DNA of 64,000 nt from an uncultured Rhodopila sp. Lineage in GTDB: Bacteria > Pseudomonadota > Alphaproteobacteria > Acetobacterales > Acetobacteraceae. Location: contig NZ_CAJATU010000167.1 in the NCBI RefSeq assembly GCF_903944925.1, positions 1-64,000 on the forward strand. Direction: 5' to 3'. Made by a program: the position numbers and the translations under genes. Below, piece after piece: positions 14,051 to 28,222 of this stretch. The notes beneath the pieces are model-generated. The model searched no databases. It was not told where the DNA came from and was given only the letters and a program-made list of their open reading frames with translations. How positions within the stretch are numbered: position 1 is the stretch's first letter; each line of letters opens with the position of its first letter.

Positions 14051-15676
14051 ATGACAAACCGACGATCGCGAAATGCGACCCGCTTCCTGCTGCTCGGCCT
14101 GATGCTGACAGCAGGCTTATTATTCGGCCGCACAGCCTTGGCCCAGGGGGCATCCGGCAGCAAGCCCAACATCGTCATCATCTGGGGCGATGATATCGGC
14201 ATCACCGACATCAGCGCCTACTCGCACGGGCTGATGGGCTTCCAGACCCCGAACATCGACCGCGTCGCCAAAGAGGGCGTGCTGTTCACCGATTACTACG
14301 GCGAACAGAGCTGCACCGCCGGTCGCGCCGCCTTCCTCACCGGCCAAAGCGTCTTCCGCACCGGCAATTCCAAAGTCGGCTTGCCGGGCGCCGATATCGG
14401 GCTGCAAAAGGAAGACCCGACCATCGCCGAGTTGCTGAAGCCGCTCGGCTACGCCACCGGCCAGTTCGGCAAGAACCACCTGGGCGATCTCAACAAGTAC
14501 CTGCCGACAGTGCACGGGTTCGACGAGTTCTACGGCAACCTGTATCACCTGAACGCGGAAGAGGAGCCCGAGGACCGCGACTATCCCAAGGACCCCGCGT
14601 TCCGGGCCAAGTTCGGGCCGCGCGGTGTGATGCACAGCTTCGCCAGCGATGTAGACGACCCGACCGTGGATCCGCGTTTCGGCCGCGTCGGCAGGCAGCG
14701 GATCGAGGACACCGGGCCGCTGACCAGGAAGCGGATGGAGACGATCGACGACGACATCGCCGCTCGCGGCGCCGCGTTCATCGATCAGCAGGTCAAGGCC
14801 GGCAAGCCGGTATTCGCCTGGATCAACTTCACCCACATGCACTTCCGCACGCACCCGAAGCCCGAGAGCGTAGGCCAGTCGGGCCGCTGGCAGAGCGAAT
14901 ACCACGACGTGATGATCGATCACGACAAGAACGTGGGCACGATCCTGGCGAAGCTGGATGAGCTTGGCATCACCGGCAATACGATCGTCATGTACAGCAC
15001 GGATAACGGGCCGCACATGAACTCCTGGCCGGATGCGGCGATGACGCCTTTCCGCAATGAGAAGAACTCCAACTGGGAAGGCGCCTACCGCGTCCCGGCG
15101 CTGGTGCGGTGGCCCGGCAAGATCAAGCCCGGCAGCGTTTCAACGGAGATCATGTCGCATCTCGACTGGCTGCCCACGTTGCTGGCCGCGGCCGGTGCGC
15201 CGGATGTCCCGCAGAAGCTGCTGACCGGCTATACCATCGGCGACATGACCTACAAGGTGCATCCCGACGGCTACAATTTCGTGCCTTACCTGACCGGGCA
15301 GGCGCCGAAGGGTCCTCGCGAGAGCTTCTTCTACTTCTCGGATGAGGGCGACCTGGTCGGGTTGCGCTACGACAACTGGAAGCTGGCCTTCGCGGTGCAG
15401 CCGGCGGAAGGCACGTTGCGCGTGTGGCAGCAGGAGTTCGAGCACCCGCGGGTGCCGTACATCTTCAACCTGCGAACCGATCCGTTCGAGCGGGCGCCGA
15501 TAACGTCGAATACCTACTATGACTGGATGCTCGACCACGCCTATCTGCTGGTGCCGGCGCAGGCCTATGTCGGTCAGTTCCTCGCGACGTTCCAGGAGTA
15601 TCCGCCGCGCCAGAGGGCGGCGAGCTTCTCGATCCGGCAGGTGCTGGAAAAGCTCGGCGAACCGGCCCAGGAGTAA
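14051..15676 (+). CDS. Exported arylsulfatase (formylglycine-dependent sulfatase)
   Basis: A 541-residue sulfatase-fold hydrolase with a Sec-type signal (LLLGLMLTAGLLFGRTALAQ). The N-terminal metal site GDDIG is near residue 46, and the maturation motif CTAGRAAFLTG is near 87. Its Cys must be converted to formylglycine by a separate enzyme that is not in this window. Further landmarks are GKNHLGD and TDNGPHMNSWPD. The chain is the size of bacterial arylsulfatases and resembles the subgroup with a long GYTIGDMTYKVHPDGYNF region. The start codon follows CGGAG at about 12 bases. It probably shares a transcript with the nucleotidase upstream, and a perfect palindrome at 15714-15743 follows it. 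Confidence 0.9.
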   Translation: MTNRRSRNATRFLLLGLMLTAGLLFGRTALAQGASGSKPNIVIIWGDDIGITDISAYSHGLMGFQTPNIDRVAKEGVLFTDYYGEQSCTAGRAAFLTGQSVFRTGNSKVGLPGADIGLQKEDPTIAELLKPLGYATGQFGKNHLGDLNKYLPTVHGFDEFYGNLYHLNAEEEPEDRDYPKDPAFRAKFGPRGVMHSFASDVDDPTVDPRFGRVGRQRIEDTGPLTRKRMETIDDDIAARGAAFIDQQVKAGKPVFAWINFTHMHFRTHPKPESVGQSGRWQSEYHDVMIDHDKNVGTILAKLDELGITGNTIVMYSTDNGPHMNSWPDAAMTPFRNEKNSNWEGAYRVPALVRWPGKIKPGSVSTEIMSHLDWLPTLLAAAGAPDVPQKLLTGYTIGDMTYKVHPDGYNFVPYLTGQAPKGPRESFFYFSDEGDLVGLRYDNWKLAFAVQPAEGTLRVWQQEFEHPRVPYIFNLRTDPFERAPITSNTYYDWMLDHAYLLVPAQAYVGQFLATFQEYPPRQRAASFSIRQVLEKLGEPAQE

Positions 15677-16431: not shown

Positions 16432-18573
16432 TCAGGTTAAAGGCCGCCACCGTCGCAGCAGCAGCGCATTGCAGACCACGCTGACCGAGGACAGCGCCAT
16501 CGCGGCACCCGCCACCATCGGGCTGAGATAGCCCAACGCCGCCATCGGGATCCCCAGCGCGTTGTAGGCGAAGGCCCAGAACAGCCCCTGCCGGATTTTT
16601 CGCACCGTAAGCCGCGACACCTCGATGGCGTCGGCGACCAGCGACAGGTCGCCGCGCATCAGGGTGATCCCCGCGGTTTCCATCGCGACGTCGGTGCCGC
16701 CCCCCATGGCGATGCCGACATCGGCGGCGGCGAGGGCAGGGGCGTCGTTGATGCCGTCGCCGACCATGGCAACCGGGTGGAGGGCGGCTACGGCTTCGGC
16801 CTTGCCCTGCGGCAGGATGCCGGCGTGGACCTCGTCGATGCCGAGCTGCGCCGCGACCGCGCGGGCGGCGCCCTCGGCGTCGCCCGTCAGCATGACGGTG
16901 CGCAGGCCCATGCGGTGAAGCTGGTCGATCGCCTGCCTGGCCCCCGGCTTGACCGTGTCGGAGAACCCCAGCACGGCTGTTGCGCGGCGGTCAGGCGCGG
17001 TCTCGGCGAGGTAGGAGACGGTGTGGCCGGCCTCGGCCATCGCCGCCGCATCGGCTGCCAGCGGGGCGAGGTCGATGCCGTTATCCGCCATCAGCCGGGC
17101 GTTGCCGAGGATCAGGTGCCGGTTGCCTATGGTTGCCGCGACGCCGAGGCCGGGCATGGCGCGGAAGGTTTCAGCGCGCGGTTTTTCGATGGCCTTTGCG
17201 GCGGTGCGGACAGCCGCGGCCAGCGGGTGCTCGCTGCCGGCCTGTAGCGCAGCGGCGTCGGCCAGCGCCTCAGCCGGGACGATGCGGGCCAGCGAGGGTT
17301 TCCCCAAGGTCAGCGTGCCGGTCTTGTCGAAGGCGACTGTTCGCACCGCGTGGGCGCGCTCCAGCGCCTGGGCATCGCGGATCAGGATGCCGCGGCGGGC
17401 GGCCATGCCGGTGCCGACCATGATGGCGGTGGGGGTGGCGAGGCCGAGGGCGCAGGGGCAGGCGATGACCAGCACGGATACCGCGTTCAGGATCGCCGTT
17501 GCCGGGGCGGCCCCGGCGATCAGCCAGACGGCGAGGGTCGCCAGCGCGATCCCGATAACGACCGGCACGAACACTGCGCTCGTTCTATCCGCCAGCCGTT
17601 GGATCGGCGCTTTCGTGGCCTGGGCGTCCTGCACCAGGCGGACAATGCGCGATAGCATGGTTTCGGCGCCGATGGCGGTGGTCTCGATGACCAGGTGGCC
17701 GTCGGTGTTGATGGCGCCGGCCGCGACGCTGTCGCCGACGGTGTGGTCTGCCGGCAGGCTCTCGCCGGTGAGCATGGAGGCGTCGATCGCGCCGCTGCCC
17801 TGGACGATGCGGCCGTCGACGGGGATGCGTTCGCCCGGGCGGCAGACGATCAGGTCGCCGTGGCGGATGGCGGCGATCGGGGTTTCGGTCTCGGTGTTGT
17901 TTTTCAGCAGGCGGGCGGTGGTGGGACGGAGTTTCGTCAGTGCGGCGAGGGCGGTGAGGGTGCTGCGCTTGGCCTTCGCCTCCAGCCATTTGCCGAACAG
18001 GACGAAGGTGATCAGCAACGCGGCGGACTCGAAATAGAGGCCGTGCGCGTGGCCGGTGCCGAGCCAGATCCAGGTGGACAGACCCCAGGCGGCGGTGGTG
18101 CCGAGGGCGACGAGCAGGTCCATGTTGCCGGACAGCGCGCGGGCGGCGGCCCAGCCGGCTTTGTAGAAGCGGGCGCCGAGCCAGAACTGGATGATCGTGG
18201 CGAGGGCGAATTGCGCGGGTGCAGGCAGCATCAGGGCGGGGATCGCCATGCCGAGCAGCAGCGGGGCGCTGAGCACGGCGGCGGCGATCAGGTGGATGAG
18301 GTCGGTTCGGTCTTGGGGATGGGTATCGGCGGCGGGCGGGGCCTCGGGGCGGATTTCGGCGGCGGTGAAGCCGGCTTTGTGCACGGCGTTGATGAGCGCC
18401 TGGAGGTCGGGGTGGTTGGCGGTGACGCGGGCCCGCTCGGTGGCGAGGTTGACGGCGGCGGCTTCGACGCCGGGGACGCGGGCGAGGACTTTCTCCACGC
18501 GGCTGACGCAGGAGGCACAGGTCATGCCGGTGATGGCGAGGTCGATGGTTTGGGTTTCGGTGTCGGCTGGCAT
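16432..18573 (-). CDS. copA: Copper-translocating P1B-type ATPase
   Basis: An inner-membrane pump expected to export Cu(I). The 713-residue chain has one N-terminal heavy-metal-binding domain with GMTCASC near residue 16 and eight membrane helices. The metal-transport CPC is in CPCALGLATP near 372, the phosphorylation site is DKTGTLT near 414, the SEHP motif follows, and GDGINDAPALAAADVG is near 606. One metal-binding domain and a CPC motif place it in the Cu+ group, though silver or Cu2+ is not excluded. The ATG at 18573 has no clear Shine-Dalgarno. No copper-responsive regulator or chaperone gene is next to it, and I see no obvious CueR-type promoter in the 115 bp upstream. Confidence 0.92.
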   Translation of the reverse strand: MPADTETQTIDLAITGMTCASCVSRVEKVLARVPGVEAAAVNLATERARVTANHPDLQALINAVHKAGFTAAEIRPEAPPAADTHPQDRTDLIHLIAAAVLSAPLLLGMAIPALMLPAPAQFALATIIQFWLGARFYKAGWAAARALSGNMDLLVALGTTAAWGLSTWIWLGTGHAHGLYFESAALLITFVLFGKWLEAKAKRSTLTALAALTKLRPTTARLLKNNTETETPIAAIRHGDLIVCRPGERIPVDGRIVQGSGAIDASMLTGESLPADHTVGDSVAAGAINTDGHLVIETTAIGAETMLSRIVRLVQDAQATKAPIQRLADRTSAVFVPVVIGIALATLAVWLIAGAAPATAILNAVSVLVIACPCALGLATPTAIMVGTGMAARRGILIRDAQALERAHAVRTVAFDKTGTLTLGKPSLARIVPAEALADAAALQAGSEHPLAAAVRTAAKAIEKPRAETFRAMPGLGVAATIGNRHLILGNARLMADNGIDLAPLAADAAAMAEAGHTVSYLAETAPDRRATAVLGFSDTVKPGARQAIDQLHRMGLRTVMLTGDAEGAARAVAAQLGIDEVHAGILPQGKAEAVAALHPVAMVGDGINDAPALAAADVGIAMGGGTDVAMETAGITLMRGDLSLVADAIEVSRLTVRKIRQGLFWAFAYNALGIPMAALGYLSPMVAGAAMALSSVSVVCNALLLRRWRPLT

Positions 18574-18688: not shown

Positions 18689-20671
18689 TCAGGATGCATG
18701 CGGGCGAGCCGTTTCACGCACCGCAGCGGCAACCCGCTCGGGCGTGATGCCGAAATGCGCGAACAACGCATCCTCCGCGCCCGATGCGCCGAAGCCGCTC
18801 ATGCCGACAAAGCCGCCATCCGCGCCGATATACCGGTCCCAGCCCTGCCGCACGGCCGCCTCGACCGCGACACGGACCGTGCCTTTGCCAAGCACCGCGT
18901 GCCGATACAAACCGTCCTGCTCCTCGAACAACTCCCAGCACGGCATCGAAACGACAGCGGTCGGCACCCCCTCGGCCTGCAGCAGGTCCCGAGCCGCCAG
19001 CGCAACAGCAACCTCCGACCCGGTGGCAAGAATGCTGGCCCGGCGGTCACCGCCCTCCGCCTCCGCAACCACGTAGCCGCCGCGGCGCGACAAATTCTCG
19101 CGGACATCGCCACCGCGCACCGGCGGCAGCTTCTGCCGCGCAAAAATCAGGCAGCACGGGCCGCTGCGGTGCGCCAGGGCGATCTCCCAACACTCCGCCG
19201 CCTCCGCCGCGTCGGCCGGACGCAGCACCAGCATGTTGGGAATCGCCCGCAGCGCCGCCAGAAACTCCACCGGCTGGTGGGTTGGACCGTTCCTGCCGAT
19301 GCCGATGGAATCATGACTGAAGACAAACGACACCGGCAGCCCCATCATCGCCGCCAGCCGCAGCGTCGGCCGCATATAGTCCGAGAACACCAGATACGTC
19401 ACGCCGATGGGAACGACTCCCCCATGCGCCGCCATGCCGTTGAGCATCGCCCCCATCGCGTGCTCGCGGATGCCGTAATGGATGTAGCGCCCGCCATGGT
19501 CCTCCGCGGTGAACGGCGCCAGCCGCCGCTTGTGCTGCGTCGCCCCCTCCAGATCCGGCGCCCCCGGCAGCAGCTCGGGAATGGCATCGGACAGCGCCGC
19601 GACTATATCGGCTGAAAGCTTGATGCCGTATTCCGCGGTCCCGGCCGCGCGCTGCTTGAAACCGTGCAGCACGCTTTCCCAACCCTCAGGCAGCCGACCT
19701 TCGCGCAGGCGGTCGAGTTCGCGGCGTTTCGCCGCGGGCAACGCGGCCACGCGCGCCTGCCACGCCTCATGGTCCGGCAGGCTGCGGCGGCCCGCGTCGC
19801 GCCAGGCGCCCAGCACGTCCGCGGGGATTTCAAACGGCGGATACGGCCATTCCAGGTAAGCGCGGGCCGCGTCGGTCTGCGCCTTGTCCAAGGTCGCGCT
19901 GTGCGCCGCCCGGGTTCCCTCCACCCGAGGCAGGCCGCGGCCGATGATGGTGCGGCAGGCGATCATCGAGGGCCGCGGATCCTGCTTGGCGAGCCGGATC
20001 GCCACGTCCACCGCATCCACGTCATGGCCATCGACTTCCTGCACATGCCAGTTGCTCAGCCGGAACCGCGCCGGCATGTCATCCGACAGCGCCAGGCCGA
20101 TGGGACCGTCATCGGTCATGCGGTTGTCGTCCCAAAGAAACACCAGCTTGCCCAGGCGAAGGTGCCCGGCCAGCGAAATCACCTCCTGCCCGACGCCTTC
20201 CTGCAGGCAGCCGTCCCCCACCAGGGCATAGGTGTAATGATCCACCAGGTCCGCGCCCAGCCACCGGTTCAGGAACGCCTCGGCCAGCGCCATCCCCGCA
20301 GCATTGGCAATGCCCTGGCCCAGCGGCCCGGTCGTTACTTCGATGCCGCGGTCGGGGTGGTATTCCGGGTGCCCTTCGCACGCCGAACCAAGCTGGCGGA
20401 AACTGCGGATATCATCCAGCGTGATCTTCTCGTACCCGGTCAGGTGCAGCAGCGCATACAGCAGCATCGAGCCGTGGCCATTCGACTCGACGAAGCGGTC
20501 GCGATCGAACCAGAGCGGGTCCGCGGGATTGAACCGCAGGTGGCGGGTGAACAGCGCGGTCGCGATGTCTGCGGCGCCGAGCGGCGTTCCGGGGTGACCC
20601 TCCCCGGCATGCTTGATCGCATCCATGGACAGGAAACGGATAGCGTTGGCCATCAGGCGTGCATCAACCAT
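18689..20671 (-). CDS. Full-length transketolase with altered donor-site loop, last gene of a catabolic operon
   Basis: A 660-residue thiamine-diphosphate enzyme that transfers two-carbon ketol units. It has the opening RFLSMDAIKHAGEGHPGTPLGAADI, the ThDP motif GDGCLQEGVGQ...WDDN near 152-180, and the catalytic Glu in IREHAMGAM near 404. The donor loop reads HDSIGIGRNGPTHQP from His453, whereas standard transketolases read GEDGPTHQP. The residues aligned to yeast Glu476/Asp477 are thus Arg460 and Asn461, and Asp477 is known to contact the donor hydroxyl. It is only 12 bp downstream of the TRAP permease, with AGGAG before the ATG at 20671. The operon therefore carries this enzyme as well as a separate split transketolase; I infer a specialised substrate rather than pentose-phosphate housekeeping. 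Confidence 0.88.
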   Translation of the reverse strand: MVDARLMANAIRFLSMDAIKHAGEGHPGTPLGAADIATALFTRHLRFNPADPLWFDRDRFVESNGHGSMLLYALLHLTGYEKITLDDIRSFRQLGSACEGHPEYHPDRGIEVTTGPLGQGIANAAGMALAEAFLNRWLGADLVDHYTYALVGDGCLQEGVGQEVISLAGHLRLGKLVFLWDDNRMTDDGPIGLALSDDMPARFRLSNWHVQEVDGHDVDAVDVAIRLAKQDPRPSMIACRTIIGRGLPRVEGTRAAHSATLDKAQTDAARAYLEWPYPPFEIPADVLGAWRDAGRRSLPDHEAWQARVAALPAAKRRELDRLREGRLPEGWESVLHGFKQRAAGTAEYGIKLSADIVAALSDAIPELLPGAPDLEGATQHKRRLAPFTAEDHGGRYIHYGIREHAMGAMLNGMAAHGGVVPIGVTYLVFSDYMRPTLRLAAMMGLPVSFVFSHDSIGIGRNGPTHQPVEFLAALRAIPNMLVLRPADAAEAAECWEIALAHRSGPCCLIFARQKLPPVRGGDVRENLSRRGGYVVAEAEGGDRRASILATGSEVAVALAARDLLQAEGVPTAVVSMPCWELFEEQDGLYRHAVLGKGTVRVAVEAAVRQGWDRYIGADGGFVGMSGFGASGAEDALFAHFGITPERVAAAVRETARPHAS

Positions 20672-20683
20672 GACGAAAGCTCC

Positions 20684-22567
20684 TTACTTCGGCAGGAAAC
20701 CGGTGGAGATCCACGGCACCGCGGCGATCAGCAGCAGGCCCAGCACCAGCACCCCGAGATACGGCCAGATGCGCAGCAGGGCGGCGTCGGGATTGACCCG
20801 TCCGATGGTGCAGGCGGCGTAGTAGCCCAGCCCGAACGGTGGCGCGAACAGGCCCACGCCCATCGCCAGGATGACCACCATCGCGTAGTGCACCTCGTTC
20901 ACCCCAAGCTGCCGGGCGATCGGGAACAGCAGCGGACCGAACAGTACCATCGCCGGGATACCCTCCAGCACGCTGCCCAGCACGATGAAGGCCAGGATGG
21001 AGATGCCGAGGAAGCCCCACGAACCGCCCGGCACCGCCGCCATCGTCGCGGCCAGGTTGTGCGAGAAGCCCGACTGCGTCAGCGCCCAGGCCATGCAGTT
21101 GGCGGCGCCGATGATGAACAGGATCGCGCCGGACAAAGACGCCGTCTCGACCAGCATCGGATAGATCCGCCGCCAGTCGAACCGCCGATAGATCAGCAGT
21201 CCGGCGAGCACGGTATAGGCGATGCCGATGGTGGACACTTCGGTCGCGGTGGCGATGCCGTTGATGACAGCGAACCGGATCAGCGCGGGCAGCAAAAGGG
21301 CGGGCAGCGCGATCAGCAGGGTCCACCCCACAGTGCGGGCGGAGGCGCGCTTGACGCCGCGCAAATCCTCGGCCCCGGTGCGCTGCCGCGCCAGGATCGC
21401 CAGGCCGATGGCCAGCACAACGCCCGGCAGCAGGCCGCCGGTAAACAGCGCGGCGATCGACACGCCGGTAACCGACCCGATGGCGATCAGCACCAGCGAC
21501 GGCGGGATCGTCTCCGCCATCGCCCCGGCGCCGGCCAGCAGGGAAACCATCTCGCCATCGGCCAGCCCGCGCTTCCTCATCTCGGGGAACAGCACCGGAG
21601 CCACCGCGGCCATGTCGGCGGTTTTCGAGCCGGAGATGCCGGAAACCAGCAGCATCGCGCCGAGCAGCACGTATTGCAGGCCGCCGCGGACATGGCCGAT
21701 GAGCGAGGCGAGGAACGCCACCATCGCCTTGGCCATGCCTGTCATCTCGACCAGGGCACCGAGCAGCACGAACAGCGGCACGGCCAGCAGAATCAGCGAA
21801 CTCATGCCCTCGTCCATGCGGCCGGGCAGAACCTGCAACGGGGTGTGGGTCGTGCACAGCAGATAGGCCACGGTCGCAAGCCCGAACGCGAAGGCTATCG
21901 GCACGCCGATGAGCACGCCGGCGCCCAGCAGCAGCACGAAGAACACCAGCAGATTCCAGTTGCCCAGATGGGCGAGCGTCGGAGCTCCCATCCACAGGAC
22001 AAGCGCCAGCACCCCCAGCACCGCCGCGACACCGGCGACATCGCGCAGCCGGTGCTGCGCCAGACGCAGCACCGAAATCGCCATCATCAACCCAAAGCCG
22101 ATCGGCATGGCGCCGGCACGCACGGCGTCGGACCAGCCCAGGGCGGGCGTTTCGATGAAGGACTGGTCCGTCATGTAGTCCAGCGCGGGGCTGATCAGGA
22201 ACGCCAGCAGCAACAACGGCGTCAGCACCGCCAGGCATTCGGCCGGGGCGCGCCACCGCGGCGGCAGGCGCCAGGCGATCGTGGACAGCCGCATATGCTC
22301 GCCCTTCGACAGCGCCAGCACCGAACCCAGCATGGCGAGCCAGAGAAAGACGATCGAGGCGAGTTCGTCACTCCACACCAACGGACTGTTCAGCCCGAAC
22401 CGGGCGACGACGCCGGTGAGCAGGATGCCGACCTCCGTCAGCACCGCCGCTGCGGCGATCGCGCCGACGATGCGGACCAGCCAGCGCTCGACCTGCGCCA
22501 GGAAGCGGCGCGAGGCCGTCATGTCGCTATCGGCTGTGGCTCCGGACGCGGCGAAGGTCCCGGTCAT
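20684..22567 (-). CDS. Fused TRAP transporter permease (DctQ-DctM)
   Basis: Inner-membrane part of a tripartite ATP-independent periplasmic transporter, which imports carboxylates, sugar acids and similar solutes using the sodium gradient. The 627-residue chain joins a four-helix DctQ-type small subunit (roughly residues 20-185, including VVARFGLNSPLVWSDELA) to a twelve-helix DctM-type large subunit. DctM landmarks include GVPIAFAFGLATV, SGISGSKTADMAAV and PPSLVLIAIGSVTG. Its ATG overlaps the stop of the binding-protein gene by four bases (ATGA), so the two are translationally coupled. The transketolase follows 12 bp downstream. Confidence 0.9.
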   Translation of the reverse strand: MTGTFAASGATADSDMTASRRFLAQVERWLVRIVGAIAAAAVLTEVGILLTGVVARFGLNSPLVWSDELASIVFLWLAMLGSVLALSKGEHMRLSTIAWRLPPRWRAPAECLAVLTPLLLLAFLISPALDYMTDQSFIETPALGWSDAVRAGAMPIGFGLMMAISVLRLAQHRLRDVAGVAAVLGVLALVLWMGAPTLAHLGNWNLLVFFVLLLGAGVLIGVPIAFAFGLATVAYLLCTTHTPLQVLPGRMDEGMSSLILLAVPLFVLLGALVEMTGMAKAMVAFLASLIGHVRGGLQYVLLGAMLLVSGISGSKTADMAAVAPVLFPEMRKRGLADGEMVSLLAGAGAMAETIPPSLVLIAIGSVTGVSIAALFTGGLLPGVVLAIGLAILARQRTGAEDLRGVKRASARTVGWTLLIALPALLLPALIRFAVINGIATATEVSTIGIAYTVLAGLLIYRRFDWRRIYPMLVETASLSGAILFIIGAANCMAWALTQSGFSHNLAATMAAVPGGSWGFLGISILAFIVLGSVLEGIPAMVLFGPLLFPIARQLGVNEVHYAMVVILAMGVGLFAPPFGLGYYAACTIGRVNPDAALLRIWPYLGVLVLGLLLIAAVPWISTGFLPK

Positions 22568-23580
22568 GTCAGCGTTCCCGCCGATGCCTCCAGCAACGAC
22601 CAGGCCTGATCGCCGAACTTGGCACGCCAGTCCTTGTAGAAGCTGGTTTTGCGCAGGGCATCGCGGAAGCTGGTGCGGTCGACATCGTTGAATTGCAGCC
22701 CCTTGGCGGCCAGGCCCTGGCGCAAGCTCTCGCTGAGCTTCGCGATGTCCGCGCGCTGGTCCATGGCGGATCTATCGAACTCCTGCGCGGCAATCGTGCG
22801 CAGATCCTCGGGCAGGCTCTGCCATGCCCGCCGATTGCCAAGCAGCCAGTATCCATCCCAGACATGGCCGGTCATGCTGCAGTATTTCTGCACTTCGTAA
22901 AGCCGCGTGGTAGCAATGATGGCGAGCGGATTCTCCTGGCCCTCGACAATATGCGTTTGCAGCGCAGAATAAAGCTCATTGAAATTGATCGGCGTCGGTC
23001 CCGCGCCGATGGAGGTGAACAGCGAGGTCAATATCGGCGCAGGTGGGACACGAATCTTGAAACCCTTCAGGTCATCAGGCGTCGCGATCGGCCGTGTTGA
23101 TGTCGTAATGTTGCGGAAGCCGTTGTCCTGCACCTTGCAGACAGTGATGATACCGCTCTTGGCGATCTGCGCCCGGACATACTCGCCCAGGCCGCCGTCC
23201 ATCGCCTTCCACACCGCGTCGTAATCGGTAAAGGCGAAGCCGACATTGGGAATGCTGGCGGCCGGCACCAGCGTCGCCAGGATGGAGGTCGAGAGATTGA
23301 AGAACTCGACGCCGCCGCTGCGCACCTGGCCCAGCAGATCGGTGTCGGAACCAAGCTGGTTGGCGGGAAACAGCGCAATCTCCAGCCGCCCCTTGCTAGC
23401 TTCGCGAATGCGGTCGATCGCCTCTTGCGCCCGAGTATTGATCGGATGCGTCGGATCCTGTCCGGTCGCCATCTTGTAGTTGTAGTCGGCCGCGAAGGCG
23501 GGTCGGCGCAGAATGCCGACCAGGGGCAGGGCGGCTGCGGCTGTAACGATGCCGCGCCGTGTGAAGCTTTTGCTTGTCAT
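22564..23580 (-). CDS. TRAP transporter periplasmic substrate-binding protein (DctP family)
   Basis: A 338-residue exported receptor that delivers ligand to the fused permease downstream. It begins with a Tat-like signal (FTRRGIVTAAAALPLVGIL ending at AFAAD). Family landmarks are the GRLEIALFPANQLGSD strand, DDLKGFKIRVPP (whose Arg normally clamps a ligand carboxylate) and VEGQENPLAII. The presence of that Arg suggests an anionic ligand such as a sugar acid. GGGAGAG precedes the ATG at 23580. It lies 24 bp after the dehydrogenase gene. Confidence 0.9.
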   Translation of the reverse strand: MTSKSFTRRGIVTAAAALPLVGILRRPAFAADYNYKMATGQDPTHPINTRAQEAIDRIREASKGRLEIALFPANQLGSDTDLLGQVRSGGVEFFNLSTSILATLVPAASIPNVGFAFTDYDAVWKAMDGGLGEYVRAQIAKSGIITVCKVQDNGFRNITTSTRPIATPDDLKGFKIRVPPAPILTSLFTSIGAGPTPINFNELYSALQTHIVEGQENPLAIIATTRLYEVQKYCSMTGHVWDGYWLLGNRRAWQSLPEDLRTIAAQEFDRSAMDQRADIAKLSESLRQGLAAKGLQFNDVDRTSFRDALRKTSFYKDWRAKFGDQAWSLLEASAGTLT

Positions 23581-23604
23581 TGTTTCTCTCCCTAAATATG
23601 GTCG

Positions 23605-24489
23605 TTACGTCAGCGGTTGGCCGTTCAGTGCGAAGTAGCTGCGAATAACCTGGCTGTCGTCCGCCGCGCCGTCACCGCGGCCGGAGGTGGCGAGGAAAAG
23701 CTGGTGCGCCAACGCGGCGAACGGCAGCGCCGCCTTGGTCTCGCGTCCGGCCTCCAGCACGATGCCAAGGTCCTTGACGAAGATATCCACCGCGCTGGTG
23801 ACCTCCGGTTCCGCCTGCAGCATGCGCGGGCCGCGGTCGTTCAGCATCCAACTGGATGCGGAAGAGCCGCCGAGGATCTTCAGCATCACGTTCAGGTCCA
23901 CGCCGACGCGGGCGGCGAGCGAGAACGCCTCGGCGACGACGGCGATATGCACGCCGCACAGCAACTGGTTGACGGTCTTGACCGCCGCGCCCTGTCCGGG
24001 ATGCTCGCCGACATGGAAAATCTTGTCGCCAAGCGCCTCCAACACCGGCTTCGCGGCGGCGAAGGTGGCGGCCGGGGCCGCCGCCATGATCGTCAGCCCG
24101 GCGCTCTTGGCCCCCGCCACGCCGCCGGAAACCGGCGAGTCGAGAAAGCGCCGGCCGCTCGCCAACACCCTTTCGGAGAGCTTTTCCACCGAGCCCGGCG
24201 GGCAGGTGGCCATCAGGGCGACGATGCCACCCTGTGGCAACGCTTCCAAGGCTCCGTCGGCGAACAGCACCTGCTCCGCCTGCGCGGCATTCACCACCAT
24301 CAGCACCAGCAGCCCGGCGCCGCTGGCCGTCTCACGGGCGGAGGAAGCAGCCGCGCCGCCCGCTGCAACCAACGCCACGATCGCCTCCCGGCGCATGTCG
24401 AAGCCGCGGACCCGAAAGCCGCGCGTGACGAGGTTGCGCGCCATTGGCAAGCCCATCGCACCGAGGCCGATGAAGCCGACGGTCGTCAT
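23605..24489 (-). CDS. Beta-hydroxyacid dehydrogenase (3-hydroxyisobutyrate/L-threonate dehydrogenase-like)
   Basis: A 294-residue NAD(P)-dependent dehydrogenase of the 6-phosphogluconate/3-hydroxyisobutyrate family. It has the Rossmann GLGAMGLPMARNL at residue 8, the substrate loop DSPVSGGVAGAK, and the catalytic lysine in VKTVNQLLCGVHIAVVAEA near 168. The NQLLxGVHIA segment is what I associate with L-threonate dehydrogenase (LtnD), although the usual partners of that route (OtnK kinase, OtnC aldolase) are absent. It should oxidise a 2- or 3-hydroxy acid or reduce a tartronate-type semialdehyde. The ATG at 24489 overlaps the preceding stop (ATGA). Confidence 0.85.
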   Translation of the reverse strand: MTTVGFIGLGAMGLPMARNLVTRGFRVRGFDMRREAIVALVAAGGAAASSARETASGAGLLVLMVVNAAQAEQVLFADGALEALPQGGIVALMATCPPGSVEKLSERVLASGRRFLDSPVSGGVAGAKSAGLTIMAAAPAATFAAAKPVLEALGDKIFHVGEHPGQGAAVKTVNQLLCGVHIAVVAEAFSLAARVGVDLNVMLKILGGSSASSWMLNDRGPRMLQAEPEVTSAVDIFVKDLGIVLEAGRETKAALPFAALAHQLFLATSGRGDGAADDSQVIRSYFALNGQPLT

Positions 24490-25535
24490 GCCGACAGCCA
24501 CCGCTTGATGCTTTTCGTCATCGCCGCCGTGGAAATCCCGTAGCGATCGTGCAATGTCGGCAGCGCGCCGGCATCCAGGAACTCGTCGGGCAGGCCGATC
24601 TGGCGGAAGGCGGGTGTAACGCCGGCGCGCAGCAGGACTCCGGCGACGGCTTCGCCGAGGCCGCCGATAACGGTGTGGTTCTCCGCGACGATGACCATGC
24701 GCCCGGTTTTGGAAGCCTCGCGGATGATCGTTGCTTCGTCGAGCGGCTTGATCGTCGGCACATGCAGCACGCCGACGTCGACCCGTTGCGCCTTCAGGCC
24801 CTCGACAGCCTCCAGCGCGCGCATGGTCATGAAGCCGGACGAAATGATCAGCGCATCCGTGCCATCGCGCAACAACTTCGCCTTCCCAAGTTCAAACTTG
24901 TAGTCATACTCATCAAGCACGATCGGCACGTTGCCGCGCAGCAGGCGCATGTAGACCGGTCCGTGGTGCGCGGCGATGGCCGGCACCGCCTGCTCGATAT
25001 CGAGTGCGTCGCAGGGATCGATGATCGTCAGGTTCGGCATGCCGCGGAAGATCGCAATGTCCTCGGTGGCCTGGTGGCTCGGGCCGTAGCCGGTCGTCAG
25101 GCCGGGCAGCGCGCAGACGACCTTGACGTTCAGGTTCTCCTCGGCGATCGCCAGACAAATGAAGTCATAGGCGCGCCGGGCGGCGAACACCGCATAGGTG
25201 GTGGCGAACGGCAGGAACCCCTCGCGCGCCATGCCCGCGGCGGTGCACATCAGAAGCTGTTCCGACATGCCCATCTGGTAGAACCGGTCGGGATGCGCCT
25301 TGGCGAATATGTGCAGGTCGGTGTACTTGCCCAGATCCGCGGTCAGGCCAACCAGGTCGGGCCGTGTTTCCGCGAGCGCAACCAGTGCCTGGCCGAACGG
25401 CGCCGGCTTCGTGCGCTGTCCCGGCGCGGCGAGAGAGGCTATCATTGCCGATGTGGTCAGGCGCGAGGCGCCGCCCTGGCCGCCTTCCCCCTGCTCCTTC
25501 AGCCGAACCGGGCGAATATATTTCGAGCGCATCAT
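24486..25535 (-). CDS. Transketolase C-terminal subunit (pyrimidine-binding half) of a split transketolase
   Basis: A 349-residue subunit that carries the Pyr and C-terminal domains. The catalytic glutamate that activates the thiamine aminopyrimidine lies in GMSEQLLMCTAAGMA near residue 91. The donor loop reads GLTTGYGPSHQATEDIA around Tyr150, where full-length transketolases have GEDGPTHQ; in an ungapped alignment the donor-contact Asp is Tyr and the upstream His is missing. It pairs with the N-subunit encoded just upstream: its ATG at 25535 overlaps that gene's stop, and GGGGAGG lies just before it. A second in-frame ATG follows immediately. Confidence 0.88.
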   Translation of the reverse strand: MMRSKYIRPVRLKEQGEGGQGGASRLTTSAMIASLAAPGQRTKPAPFGQALVALAETRPDLVGLTADLGKYTDLHIFAKAHPDRFYQMGMSEQLLMCTAAGMAREGFLPFATTYAVFAARRAYDFICLAIAEENLNVKVVCALPGLTTGYGPSHQATEDIAIFRGMPNLTIIDPCDALDIEQAVPAIAAHHGPVYMRLLRGNVPIVLDEYDYKFELGKAKLLRDGTDALIISSGFMTMRALEAVEGLKAQRVDVGVLHVPTIKPLDEATIIREASKTGRMVIVAENHTVIGGLGEAVAGVLLRAGVTPAFRQIGLPDEFLDAGALPTLHDRYGISTAAMTKSIKRWLSA

Positions 25536-26383
25536 GCGGTCCTCCCCGAGTCCAGAACAGTGAGCGCCTGCTGCCATTCATCCGCCTCGACGCGCAGGAA
25601 GTGATTGCTTTCCCGCTGCTCGAGGAACGGCACGCCCTTGGCCATCTTGGTGTCGCAGATGATGACGCGCGGCATAGGCTCGCGCAGCGACCGCGCCGCG
25701 TCAAAAGCACTGACCAGCGCACCGATGTCGTTGCCGTTGACCCGCTGCGCATACCAGCCGAAGGCGGTGAATCGATCGGCCAGATGCTCCAGACCTCCGG
25801 TGACCTCGGACGACGGACCATCCGCCTGCTGGTTGTTGACGTCGACAATGCCAATCAGGTTGTCCAGCTTCCAGTGGCCGGCACCGGATGCGCCTTCCCA
25901 GACCGCGCCCTCACCGCATTCGCCGTCGGAGAACAGGCAATAGACGAACGCATCCGACTTCTTTCGCTTCAGCCCGAGGGCGTAGCCGACGCCGATGGCC
26001 AACCCCTGGCCGAGCGAGCCGCCGCTGATCTCCATGCCCGGCGTGTAGCTGGCCATGCCCGACATCGGCAGCCGGCTGTCATCCGATCCGTAGGTTTCGA
26101 GCTCGTCCTCCGGGATGATGCCGGCCTCGATCATCGCCGAATATGCTGCGATAGCGTAATGGCCGATCGATAGCAGGAAGCGGTCGCGGCCTTCCCATTC
26201 CGGATCGTCCGGATGGTAGCGCATGGCGTGAAAGTAGGCGACGGCGAGCACGTCCGCGACACCAAGTGCCTGGGCGATGTAGCCCTGGCCCTGCACCTCG
26301 CCCATGCGCAATGCATTGCGCCTGATACGATAGGCGCGCTCGGCCAGGCTCGGCGCATTGGCGCGCGACGTTGGCGTTTCCAT
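25532..26383 (-). CDS. Transketolase N-terminal subunit (ThDP-binding half) of a split transketolase
   Basis: A 283-residue subunit with the diphosphate-binding domain. The ThDP/Mg motif is SDGECGEGAVWEGA followed by GIVDVNNQQADG (about residues 152-180), with SIGHYAIAAYSAM and GGSLGQGLAIGVGYA as further family landmarks. It must combine with the C-subunit downstream to form a transketolase. Known two-subunit enzymes of this kind act on unusual ketoses, for example apulose-4-phosphate (AptAB) and sulfofructose (SqwGH); which substrate applies here is open. GGGAG precedes the ATG at 26383, 41 bp after the SDR gene. Confidence 0.88.
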   Translation of the reverse strand: METPTSRANAPSLAERAYRIRRNALRMGEVQGQGYIAQALGVADVLAVAYFHAMRYHPDDPEWEGRDRFLLSIGHYAIAAYSAMIEAGIIPEDELETYGSDDSRLPMSGMASYTPGMEISGGSLGQGLAIGVGYALGLKRKKSDAFVYCLFSDGECGEGAVWEGASGAGHWKLDNLIGIVDVNNQQADGPSSEVTGGLEHLADRFTAFGWYAQRVNGNDIGALVSAFDAARSLREPMPRVIICDTKMAKGVPFLEQRESNHFLRVEADEWQQALTVLDSGRTA

Positions 26384-26424
26384 CCGTAATCTCCCGATGT
26401 TTTACTTACTTATCCGGCGGCTGA

Positions 26425-27174
26425 TCAGTGGATCAGCATGCCGCCGTTGACGTCGATGACCGCGCCGGTGATGTACGACGACAAATCCGACGCCAGGAAC
26501 AGGTAGGCGCCCGCGACATCCTCGGCATTGCCAAGCCGATTGAGCGGGATGCCCTTGGTGATGTCCGCCCGCAATTCGTCGGTCAGCTTGCCGCCGGTGA
26601 TGTCGGTCTGGATCATGCCCGGGGTGACGCAGTTGACGCGGACATTGTCAGGGCCGAGTTCGCGCGCCATCGCCTTGGCGAGGCCGAGCACTCCGGCTTT
26701 GGCCGCCGAATAATGCGGCCCGCCGAAGATGCCGCCGCCGCGCTGGGCGGAGACCGACGACATGCAGACGATCGAGCCCTGCTTGCGCTCCCGCATGTGC
26801 GGCACAAACGCCTGGCTGAGATAGAAAACGCCGCCGAGGTTGACGTCCAGCACGCGGTGCCAGTTCTCCGGCGAGATGTCCATGAACTTCAGCGGTTGGG
26901 TGATGCCGGCATTGGCCAGCAGGATATCGGCCTTGCCGAAAGCCTCCAGCACCGCCCGCGCCGCAGCCTGACAACTTGCCGGATCAGCGACGTTGCAAAC
27001 GAAACCACGATGCTGCGGGCCGAGTTCCGCGGCGGCTCGTTGCGCGCCCGCTTCGTCAAGATCAAGAATGGCGACTGTTGCCCCGTGTTGCGCAAAGAGC
27101 TTCGCAGTCGCGAGACCAATGCCGCGGGGACTGGCGGCCCCGGAAATGACGGCGACTTTGTCTTTGAGCAGCAT
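26425..27174 (-). CDS. Short-chain dehydrogenase/reductase, first gene of the catabolic operon
   Basis: A 249-residue classical SDR expected to oxidise a secondary alcohol of the operon's substrate with NAD(P). It shows the cofactor motif SGAASPRGIG at residues 11-20, NAGI near 89, the catalytic Ser in SSVSAQRGG near 140, the YxxxK motif HYSAAKAG near 152, and the C-terminal GAVIDVNGG. An Asp follows the second beta strand (LDLDEA), which usually indicates NAD preference. AGGAGG lies nine bases before the ATG at 27174. It heads a run of seven same-strand genes with gaps of at most 41 bp and three ATGA overlaps. Confidence 0.9.
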   Translation of the reverse strand: MLLKDKVAVISGAASPRGIGLATAKLFAQHGATVAILDLDEAGAQRAAAELGPQHRGFVCNVADPASCQAAARAVLEAFGKADILLANAGITQPLKFMDISPENWHRVLDVNLGGVFYLSQAFVPHMRERKQGSIVCMSSVSAQRGGGIFGGPHYSAAKAGVLGLAKAMARELGPDNVRVNCVTPGMIQTDITGGKLTDELRADITKGIPLNRLGNAEDVAGAYLFLASDLSSYITGAVIDVNGGMLIH

Positions 27175-27280
27175 CTTGTTTTCCTCCTGTTTGTCTGTTG
27201 CGATCGGGTTTGCCGCAGCCGCCGGTTGCCGACAAGCGAGAAATTTGCACCCATCGGTGAATTGGGCTCATCATTCGCCG
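27175..27280. promoter_or_regulatory. Divergent control region between the catabolic operon and its LysR regulator
   Basis: This 106-bp gap separates divergent genes and must contain the operon promoter and the regulator's own. An imperfect dyad TGCACCCATCGGTGAA (CACC at 27248-27251, GGTG at 27256-27259, with flanking T27246 and A27261) is a possible LysR site. It is short, so I treat it only as a candidate. Confidence 0.35.
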
Positions 27281-28222
27281 ATGGTCCGCTACTTGCCGCT
27301 TACCGCGCTGCGCGCCTTTGAAGCTGTGACGCGCACCGGCTCGTTTCGGGCCGCCGCCGCGGATCTGAGCCTGACGCCGAGTGCGGTCAGCCACGCTATC
27401 CGCGGGTTGGAGCGCACGCTGGGCACGGCGCTGTTCGTGCGCGACGGGCGCTCGATCCGGCTGACCGGGGAGGGCGAAACCCTGATGCATCATGTCGAGC
27501 GCGGCTTCGGCGAACTGCAACTCGGTATCGGCAACATCTCGGCGCGCGGGCCGCGGTTGTTGCGCCTGCATTGTGCACCGAGCTTCGCTGCGCAGTGGCT
27601 GGTGCCGCGCCTGCGCAAGCTTCTGGTCGAGACCGATCGGCTGGAGGTGCGGATCGTCGCGGATACCGGCTACACCCGCTTCGTCGATGACGAATTCGAT
27701 GCGGACATCGTGTACGGCGCCTCGCCGTCGTATCTTTATGGCACCTCGGGACAACAGGGCGTGGTGGTATTGCCGCTTGGGGAGGAAGTGATGACCCCGC
27801 TCTGTGCGCCGGAACTCGCGGTGCGCATCCAGACCGCGCAAAGTCTGCTGAATGAGACGCTGATTGTCAGCGAGATGAAGAAGGTGCGTTGGCCGGCCTG
27901 GTTCACGGCGAACGGCCTGGTCGCGCCTGAGCCGCACGGCCCCCGGTTCGACCGCAGTTTTCTGTCATTGAGCGCGGCGGCGGACGGACTTGGTGTCGCA
28001 CTGGAGTCGCTGCTGCTGGCTGAGCGCGAACTGGCATCGGGACGGCTCGTGCGGCCGTTGCAGGGGATATGCGCGGATATCACCTATACCGGCCACTGGC
28101 TCGTGTTCCCGCGGGCGAAGCGATACTCGAAGTCGATCATTGTCTTCGTCGATTGGCTGGCGAAAGAACTCAAGATGAATATTGATTATGCCCAGCTCGA
28201 TGTCGGGGGCGGCGCCCAATAA
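27281..28222 (+). CDS. LysR-family transcriptional regulator (GcvA-like)
   Basis: A 313-residue regulator with an N-terminal winged helix-turn-helix (LTALRAFEAVTRTGSFRAAA, then LSLTPSAVSHAIRGLE) and a C-terminal periplasmic-binding-fold effector domain from about residue 90. The sequence PLTALRAFEAV with SAVSHAI is typical of the GcvA/AmpR branch. The ATG at 27281 is chosen because the HTH begins directly after it; upstream in-frame codons lie over the operon leader. It is divergent from the seven-gene operon, so it most likely senses the substrate or an intermediate of that pathway. Confidence 0.9.
   Translation: MVRYLPLTALRAFEAVTRTGSFRAAAADLSLTPSAVSHAIRGLERTLGTALFVRDGRSIRLTGEGETLMHHVERGFGELQLGIGNISARGPRLLRLHCAPSFAAQWLVPRLRKLLVETDRLEVRIVADTGYTRFVDDEFDADIVYGASPSYLYGTSGQQGVVVLPLGEEVMTPLCAPELAVRIQTAQSLLNETLIVSEMKKVRWPAWFTANGLVAPEPHGPRFDRSFLSLSAAADGLGVALESLLLAERELASGRLVRPLQGICADITYTGHWLVFPRAKRYSKSIIVFVDWLAKELKMNIDYAQLDVGGGAQ

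What the first reader, a model, noticed from the sequence alone, without database searches (positions are those of the whole stretch)
18689..28222. Uncharacterised catabolic operon with two different transketolases and a dedicated TRAP importer
Seven minus-strand genes are packed with gaps of at most 41 bp and three ATGA overlaps: SDR, split transketolase N and C subunits, beta-hydroxyacid dehydrogenase (LtnD-like), DctP, fused DctQM, full-length transketolase, with a divergent LysR gene. There is no kinase, isomerase or aldolase. Known split transketolases serve unusual ketoses (apulose-4-phosphate, sulfofructose), but the partner genes of those routes are missing. I infer uptake of an anionic sugar derivative, oxidation by the SDR and/or the LtnD-like enzyme, and carbon-carbon cleavage by one or both transketolases.
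Basis: partly seen in the sequence, partly recalled or inferred. Interest (0 to 1): 0.72.

Follow-up and report, generated by a model that had tools for sequence, protein, structure and literature searches.

The report
Kinase-free sugar-acid operon with two transketolases
A widespread but unstudied bacterial gene set appears to import a small sugar acid, oxidise it and cut it apart with two unusual transketolases instead of first adding phosphate, which would be a new way to break down such compounds if bench tests confirm it.

Summary
Seven minus-strand genes (18689-27174) are packed with gaps of 41, -4, -4, 24, -4 and 12 bp beside a divergent LysR gene. Synteny is strongly conserved: in 62 of 62 close relatives with long flanks, DctP stands with the same SDR and split transketolase (TKN+TKC). 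LtnD-like (29/62) and full-length TK (23/62) are optional, and other importers occur, so SDR+TKN+TKC is the core. Neither transketolase is ordinary. The split enzyme has Tyr and Ser for E. coli TktA His26 and His100 in 88/88 members; 6/6 other split TKs keep both. The full-length one has lost Arg358, Ser385 and Asp469 (27/27) but keeps its catalytic residues. Two Azospirillum strains carry SDR, full-length TK, D-2-hydroxyacid dehydrogenase and glycerate kinase as one unit, so the route probably ends at D-glycerate. Best reading: a kinase-free route in which the SDR makes a keto acid from a small (probably C5) sugar acid, a TK removes two carbons, and the remainder becomes glycerate. Substrate and activities are unproven. 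A structure deposited as 3-oxoacyl-ACP reductase (7krk) is 97% identical to an Acinetobacter SDR of this gene set.

The parts
27281..28222 (+). divergent LysR-type regulator gene (GcvA-like by family score)
   Evidence: NCBIfam GcvA 219 bits, below its 288-bit cut-off (run on 27278-28222); ATG at 27281; a LysR homologue (33% identity or more) in 60 of 62 loci
27231..27251 (-). 21-bp motif GGTGCAAATTTCTCGCTTGTC between LysR and SDR, identical in the two nearest relatives L009 and L010; possible operator (inferred, weak)
26425..27174 (-). core SDR: predicted NAD(P)-dependent dehydrogenase of the imported acid
   Evidence: NCBIfam/Pfam SDR; 160/249 identical to PDB 7krk; present in 62 of 62 loci
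25532..26383 (-). core split transketolase, N subunit (TKN), with TktA H26->Y and H100->S
   Evidence: Pfam PF00456; site counts 88/88
24486..25535 (-). core split transketolase, C subunit (TKC), with TktA H461->L and D469->Y; E411, H473, R520 kept
   Evidence: Pfam PF02779, PF02780; site counts 89/89; ATGA start overlap
23605..24489 (-). optional LtnD-like beta-hydroxyacid dehydrogenase
   Evidence: NCBIfam ThreonDh 300 bits, below its 350-bit cut-off; in 29 of 62 loci
22564..23580 (-). DctP, TRAP solute-binding protein
   Evidence: NCBIfam TIGR00787 over cut-off; closest PDB 4oan
20684..22567 (-). fused DctQM TRAP membrane protein
   Evidence: Pfam PF04290 + PF06808
18689..20671 (-). optional full-length transketolase of a remodelled clade (R358I, S385A, E468R, D469N; catalytic His kept)
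   Evidence: TIGR00232 696 bits against a 682-bit cut-off; site counts

Best explanation
The operon encodes a kinase-free route for a small non-phosphorylated sugar acid, most likely C5 (a pentonate or its branched, apionate-type isomer). Step 1: TRAP uptake (shown by family only). Step 2: the SDR oxidises the hydroxyl next to the terminal carbon, giving a keto-aldonate that is a ketol donor (inferred). Step 3: the split TK, in other strains the full-length TK, cleaves beside the new carbonyl and passes the two-carbon unit to an acceptor, probably glyceraldehyde 3-phosphate to give xylulose 5-phosphate (inferred by analogy with sulfofructose transketolase). Step 4: the C3 remainder, tartronate semialdehyde or hydroxypyruvate, is reduced to D-glycerate by the LtnD-like enzyme or, in relatives, the D-2-hydroxyacid dehydrogenase, and phosphorylated by a glycerate kinase encoded in the operon or elsewhere (supported by gene linkage only). 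The LysR protein presumably senses the acid or an intermediate.
For: Core SDR-TKN-TKC constant in 62/62 loci while the importer varies: several TRAP types, or in Pantoea, Acinetobacter, Paraburkholderia and Caballeronia an MFS, the Pantoea one nearest to the D-galactonate transporter model though below its cut-off (341 against 395 bits). A lactonase-like amidohydrolase and a CUT2 sugar ABC importer follow in Rhizobium etli, an Agrobacterium strain and Paraburkholderia FT54. A. ramasamyi and A. lipoferum 4B carry LysR // SDR - TKfull - D-2-hydroxyacid dehydrogenase - glycerate kinase, the SDR being 70-72% identical to the window's. The D-2-hydroxyacid dehydrogenase gene occurs in 11 of 23 loci with TKfull and 0 of 39 without. 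ThDP and catalytic residues are intact in both TKs while the phosphate contact R358 is lost in both and S385 in TKfull, as expected for unphosphorylated acids. Sulfo-TK is a characterised kinase-free precedent (PMC9594981, passages).
Against: No activity, ligand or growth phenotype is known. 29 of 62 loci have neither LtnD-like, TKfull nor the D-2-hydroxyacid dehydrogenase gene, so the glycerate exit is not seen in those core operons. Glycerate kinase was found in 2 of the 80 DctP loci, besides the two Azospirillum plasmids. The LtnD-like protein scores closer to L-threonate dehydrogenase than to tartronate semialdehyde reductase, which favours a C4 acid. In the split TK the changes at S385, H461 and D469 are not telling: six other split TKs lack S385 and D469 too (6/6) and mostly H461 (5/6). 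Loss of H100 in the split TK could mean a donor without a terminal hydroxyl. The D469N/E468R change in TKfull fits a carboxylate at C4 of the donor better than one at C5. Glyceraldehyde 3-phosphate as acceptor is assumed although phosphate contacts are lost.
Confidence: 0.45

Rival explanations
1. The substrate is a C4 tetronate (L-threonate or D-erythronate). SDR (or LtnD-like plus an isomerase) makes 3-oxo-tetronate, and a TK splits it into glyoxylate plus a two-carbon unit; the D-2-hydroxyacid dehydrogenase is a glyoxylate reductase.
For: LtnD-like protein is nearest to the L-threonate dehydrogenase model. D469N with E468 to Arg/Lys in TKfull would suit a carboxylate at C4. TIM-barrel proteins occur in S. 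meliloti Ak57, Shinella and Sphaerotilus operons.
Against: Does not explain the glycerate kinase beside the D-2-hydroxyacid dehydrogenase. LtnD-like scores are below the model's cut-off. The TIM-barrel proteins match no NCBIfam model at 1e-8.
Confidence: 0.2
2. A special case of the main reading: the substrate is a branched acid of the apionate/isoapionate type. The SDR gives 3-oxo-isoapionate and a TK releases hydroxypyruvate directly, which the D-2-hydroxyacid dehydrogenase and glycerate kinase take to 2-phosphoglycerate.
For: Explains the SDR-TKfull-hydroxyacid dehydrogenase-glycerate kinase unit without an extra isomerase. AptAB (recalled) and DesAB (hypothesised there; PMC5408610, passages) are split TKs whose remainder would be a ketone. 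The DctP family member 4oan is recalled to bind 2-acetolactate, a deoxy analogue.
Against: 4oan-type proteins lie in other gene contexts without TK: beside an acyl-CoA synthetase in L122 and L125, near aldehyde dehydrogenase and enoyl-CoA hydratase genes in L126 and L127, so the ligand does not transfer.
Confidence: 0.15
3. The split TK works like DXS or pyruvate dehydrogenase E1: it makes an acetyl-type (hydroxyethyl) unit from an acid with a methyl ketone end, such as a deoxy-sugar acid.
For: H100, recalled to contact the C1 hydroxyl of the donor, is lost in 88/88 and is also absent in an own-genome protein that I take for DXS by its motifs (own3; not family-typed). TKN has an E1_dh match (37 bits) and TKC scores next best with DXS. 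The linked lactonase is nearest to L-fuconolactonase, far below cut-off.
Against: TKfull keeps H100 and stands without the split TK behind the same SDR family in two Azospirillum strains, which argues for a hydroxylated two-carbon unit.
Confidence: 0.1
4. Hexonate route in two rounds, as in sulfoglycolysis by transketolase: 5-keto-hexonate to tartaric semialdehyde, isomerisation, then 3-oxo-tetronate to glyoxylate, each TK doing one round.
For: Two TKs in one operon; TIM-barrel protein in some. The two-round logic is described for SqwGH.
Against: 39 of 62 loci have only the split TK; glycerate kinase unexplained.
Confidence: 0.1

Closest known systems
Sulfofructose transketolase SqwGH (sulfo-TK pathway)
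   Same: ThDP-dependent transketolase (two subunits, recalled) acting on an anionic, non-phosphorylated ketose; no kinase step described before it; C2 unit goes to glyceraldehyde 3-phosphate (PMC9594981, passages)
   Different: Sulfonate, not a carboxylic acid; isomerases rather than an SDR make the ketose. SqwGH sequence was not held, so no alignment was made
Apulose-4-phosphate transketolase AptAB (recalled, Carter et al. 2018)
   Same: Split transketolase in a dedicated catabolic operon
   Different: Acts after a sugar kinase; here there is none. The kinase-linked split TKs I held (L103, L104, L105) are a different group that keeps H26 and H100
Steroid-17,20-desmolase DesAB
   Same: Split transketolase pair with lysR and, in some, an SDR-family gene nearby; proposed cleavage next to a ketol (PMC5408610, passages)
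   Different: Steroid substrate; anaerobic gut clostridia and others; sequence not held
L-threonate/D-erythronate pathway (LtnD, OtnI, OtnK, OtnC; recalled)
   Same: LtnD-like dehydrogenase of an acid sugar
   Different: No OtnK or OtnC among the seven genes; LtnD-like score below cut-off
PDB 7krk/7krm, labelled 3-oxoacyl-[acyl-carrier-protein] reductase
   Same: 241/249 identical to the SDR of an Acinetobacter LysR-SDR-MFS-TKN-TKC operon; 160/249 to the window's SDR
   Different: The deposited label is a fatty-acid enzyme; the operon context argues for a dehydrogenase of an imported acid

Membership tests
Canonical bacterial transketolase (TIGR00232) | full-length score over the curated cut-off | tested here: met
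   18689-20671: 696.3 against 682.25 bits
Canonical bacterial transketolase (TIGR00232) | sugar-phosphate site R358, S385, D469 (TktA numbering checked on the K-12 sequence; roles recalled) | tested here: not met
   Window has I, A, N; 0 of 27 operon copies have R358, S385 or D469, against 29 of 30 other TKs each; the one exception, L168, falls in the clade of the operon copies
Split transketolases with H26 and H100 | H26 and H100 present | tested here: not met
   Y and S in 88 of 88; 6 of 6 other split TKs keep both
ThDP-dependent transketolase chemistry | E411, D155, N185, H66, H261, H473 (roles recalled) | tested here: met
   E411 and H473 in 89/89 TKC; D155, N185, H66, H261 in 88/88 TKN; all six in 26/26 TKfull
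Sulfofructose transketolase SqwGH / apulose-4-P transketolase AptAB / DesAB | sequence clade and substrate | not testable with these tools
   Reference sequences not held; no enzyme assay possible
AptAB-type operon (recalled) | dedicated sugar kinase | tested here: not met
   None among the seven genes
L-threonate dehydrogenase LtnD (NF043037) | score over the equivalog cut-off | tested here: not met
   300 against 350 bits
Tartronate semialdehyde reductase (TIGR01505) | score over the equivalog cut-off | tested here: not met
   210 against 341 bits
FabG | score over a FabG equivalog cut-off | tested here: not met
   241 against 296 bits for the best equivalog; but over two broad subfamily models, FabG-named NF009466 (235 against 222) and glucose 1-dehydrogenase NF005559 (237 against 215)
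DctP TRAP solute-binding protein | TIGR00787 over cut-off | tested here: met
   218 against 175 bits

The most novel reading that the evidence does not exclude
A new, widespread catabolic strategy in Proteobacteria: unphosphorylated keto-aldonates are dismantled by two purpose-evolved transketolase clades (a split H26Y/H100S form and a full-length D469N form) that serve one SDR family, giving central sugar phosphates plus glycerate. The clades would be the first dedicated keto-sugar-acid transketolases.
Probability: 0.5. Interest if true: 0.72.

Novelty: new variant of a known kind. Interest (0 to 1): 0.6.

Why it matters
If right, it adds a kinase-free, transketolase-based route to the known ways of using sugar acids. 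It sits in many soil, plant-associated and nodule bacteria (Bradyrhizobium and Methylobacterium; Sinorhizobium, Rhizobium, Azospirillum, Pantoea, Paraburkholderia), in 187 plasmid records among others. It suggests a function for a structure deposited as a fatty-acid reductase. It also defines two transketolase clades whose natural residue changes fall at active-site positions (H26, H100, D469, R358, S385) of the kind that protein engineers alter to change substrate range (recalled).

Tried and rejected
(1) Reading the ligand off 4oan: rejected, because the closest orthologue found of that protein (L122, 84%) sits beside an acyl-CoA synthetase with no TK, and the own-genome copy at C70 (L123, 65%) also has no TK near. 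The 2-acetolactate ligand is my recollection; the tool titles were cut off, a review lists 2-acetolactate as a TRAP ligand (PMC5812351, passages), and the primary paper is not held.

(2) RuBisCO-like protein beside the operon in L009: its best model is 3-oxo-isoapionate-4-phosphate decarboxylase, but at 219 against a 700-bit cut-off. In the own genome a RuBisCO-like gene lies on another contig beside radical SAM, DUF3237 and beta-hydroxyacid dehydrogenase genes. Judged coincidental.

(3) AlphaFold model of DctP: mean pLDDT 60, used only to reach PDB titles.

(4) 7krk is not the protein AbSDR (6NRP) of PMC8007833, which I first suspected (passages).

(5) Tree of full-length TKs (careful search unfinished): discarded, since several rows were wrong-frame ORFs; redone with tblastn-derived rows.

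(6) Neighbour clustering contains spurious antisense ORFs; only genes confirmed by family models or tblastn were used.

(7) Literature: searches for TRAP ligand terms, split transketolase, apiose/apionate, apulose, TRAP with transketolase, aldonate terms and Acinetobacter terms listed no paper on this operon (titles and abstract starts seen, plus passages of the papers named here). Rhizobium leguminosarum RL2718-19 transketolases (PMC3333776, passages) lie with a CUT2 solute-binding protein and in a cluster induced with arabinogalactan; by that context I take them for a different split-TK type.

(8) G247, a genome with a relative of the full-length TK but no split TK found: contig too short upstream to inform.
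Full report
OBSERVATION. Family models give SDR, transketolase N, transketolase C, a beta-hydroxyacid dehydrogenase nearest to L-threonate dehydrogenase (300 bits, below its 350-bit cut-off), DctP, fused DctQM and a full-length transketolase (696 against a 682-bit cut-off). Gaps are 41, -4, -4, 24, -4 and 12 bp. LysR starts at the ATG at 27281. A 21-bp motif at 27231-27251, identical in the two nearest relatives, lies between LysR and SDR.

SYNTENY. A scan of species genomes with a DctP alignment matched 279 relatives and kept the best 80 loci, DctP 68-96% identical. Of these, 62 have at least 5.9 kb on both sides of DctP. SDR, TKN and TKC (55% identity or more) are present in 62 of 62, DctQM in 61, a LysR homologue in 60 (divergent in 40, co-directional in 20), LtnD-like in 29 and the full-length TK in 23. 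In these 62 the best-segment identities to the window go down to about 61% for SDR and 68% for TKN. Control: DctP relatives at 47-58% identity (10 places in a sample of 385 genomes) have no split TK near; 9 were read over 11-18 kb and 1 over 3.9 kb. In the plasmid collection 458 records match TKN, 187 at 60-80% identity and 271 below 60%.

WHAT IS CORE. The importer changes while SDR-TKN-TKC stays. It is TRAP of several kinds in most regions read, and an MFS in Pantoea, Acinetobacter, Paraburkholderia and Caballeronia; the Pantoea one is nearest to the D-galactonate transporter model, below its cut-off (341 against 395 bits). R. etli, an Agrobacterium strain and Paraburkholderia FT54 add a CUT2 sugar ABC importer and an amidohydrolase; the R. 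etli one is nearest to L-fuconolactonase, far below its cut-off (112 against 400). S. meliloti Ak57, Shinella and Sphaerotilus add a xylose-isomerase-like TIM-barrel protein. PntAB transhydrogenase genes follow in FT54, and a PntA gene follows in one Microvirga locus.

THE GLYCERATE END. In Azospirillum locus L053 the operon runs on through the full-length TK into a D-2-hydroxyacid dehydrogenase and a glycerate 2-kinase; among the 80 loci only L053 and L054 have this kinase. In A. ramasamyi and A. lipoferum 4B the unit LysR // SDR - full-length TK - D-2-hydroxyacid dehydrogenase - glycerate kinase stands by itself, without split TK or importer in the stretch. Its SDR is 70-72% identical to the window's, and A. 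ramasamyi keeps SDR-TKN-TKC-TRAP-LtnD on another plasmid. Among the 62 loci the D-2-hydroxyacid dehydrogenase occurs in 11 of 23 with full-length TK and 0 of 39 without; 29 have none of LtnD-like, full-length TK or this dehydrogenase. So both TK branches share one SDR family, and one of them visibly ends at glycerate. Two carbons removed plus a three-carbon remainder suggests a C5 acid; this is inference.

THE TWO TRANSKETOLASES. Sites were mapped on E. coli TktA (roles of residues recalled). In the split enzyme H26 is Tyr and H100 is Ser in 88 of 88 (75 of the 80 loci that passed a coverage filter, 12 annotated records and the window), while E411, H66, H261, H473, D155, N185 and R520 are kept. 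H461 is Leu and D469 is Tyr in 89 of 89 (the second depends on a one-residue gap), R358 is lost in 89 of 89 and S385 falls in a gap. Six other split TKs keep H26 and H100 in 6 of 6 and R358 in 4 of 6, but also lack S385 and D469 (6 of 6) and mostly H461 (5 of 6), so only H26 and H100 set this family apart cleanly. The full-length TK has R358 changed (I 25, W 1, N 1), S385 changed (P 24, A 3), E468 to Arg/Lys and D469 to Asn in 27 of 27, with H26, H66, H100, H261, H461, H473 and R520 kept. Of 30 other TKs, 29 keep R358, S385 and D469; the exception (L168) falls in the clade of the operon copies. Five further copies on plasmids agree for R358, S385 and D469, but one (L184) has Thr at 468 and two (L180, L182) have Lys at 520. 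In the sample of 385 genomes, scored on at most three candidates each, the only other listed copy above 60% identity was in G355, which also carries the operon. The changes remove phosphate contacts and the acid next to the acceptor, as would suit unphosphorylated carboxylated substrates. This is inference from position, not an assay.

THE SDR. Its closest solved structure is 7krk, labelled 3-oxoacyl-[acyl-carrier-protein] reductase. An Acinetobacter contig carries LysR-SDR-MFS-TKN-TKC, and that SDR is 241/249 identical to 7krk; the window's SDR is 160/249 identical. So a structure of this family exists under a fatty-acid label.

THE LIGAND QUESTION. DctP is 54-60% identical to 4oan, by method. 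I recall 2-acetolactate as its ligand. The 4oan-type genes stand in other contexts without TK (acyl-CoA synthetase in L122 and L125), so I do not transfer the ligand.

CONCLUSION. The set is real, conserved and coherent, and I found no paper on it in the eight searches named under Tried and rejected. The closest working analogue is the sulfo-TK pathway (PMC9594981, passages). I favour oxidation to a keto-aldonate followed by transketolase cleavage to a C3 acid and glycerate, at about even odds, with a tetronate, a deoxy acid or a hexonate as rivals and a branched acid as a special case.

Noticed in passing
PDB 7krk/7krm versus L132:5969-6718: Structure labelled 3-oxoacyl-ACP reductase is 97% identical to an SDR encoded between LysR and MFS/split-TK genes in Acinetobacter; label probably wrong.
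   Followed up: yes
L132 (CAKLQH020000010.1): A 115-kb record filed as 'Acinetobacter phage MD-2021a' carries metH, pitA, galM and this operon in the 19 kb read, so it looks like bacterial chromosome.
   Followed up: no
L104, L105: A second split-TK type in Sinorhizobium with CUT2 sugar ABC importer, FGGY kinase, tpiA and SDRs; it keeps H26 and H100 and looks like a phosphorylated-sugar route.
   Followed up: partly
L101:7010-14816: Split TK genes followed by an acyltransferase, AMP-binding and acyl-CoA reductase genes in Rhizobium beringeri; looks biosynthetic.
   Followed up: no
L102:1746-11853: Split TK genes between radical SAM/cobalamin-binding, kinase and methyltransferase genes in Azospirillum argentinense.
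   Followed up: no
L123, L124 (own genome, C70 and C131): Two further DctP paralogues of the same family without transketolase genes near; C70 is of the 4oan type.
   Followed up: partly
L009:13092-15005 and own genome C105 (L185:7773-9644): RuBisCO-like protein, weakly OiaX-like in L009; next to the operon in that MAG, on another contig in the own genome.
   Followed up: partly
L177 (G247:C120): Relative of the operon's full-length TK with the same changes at R358, S385 and D469 in a genome where no split TK of this family was found; context truncated.
   Followed up: partly
window 14051-15676 and 16432-18573: A sulfatase-like gene (by eye, not family-typed) and a CopA-type P-type ATPase lie downstream of the operon; no sign that they belong to it.
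   Followed up: no
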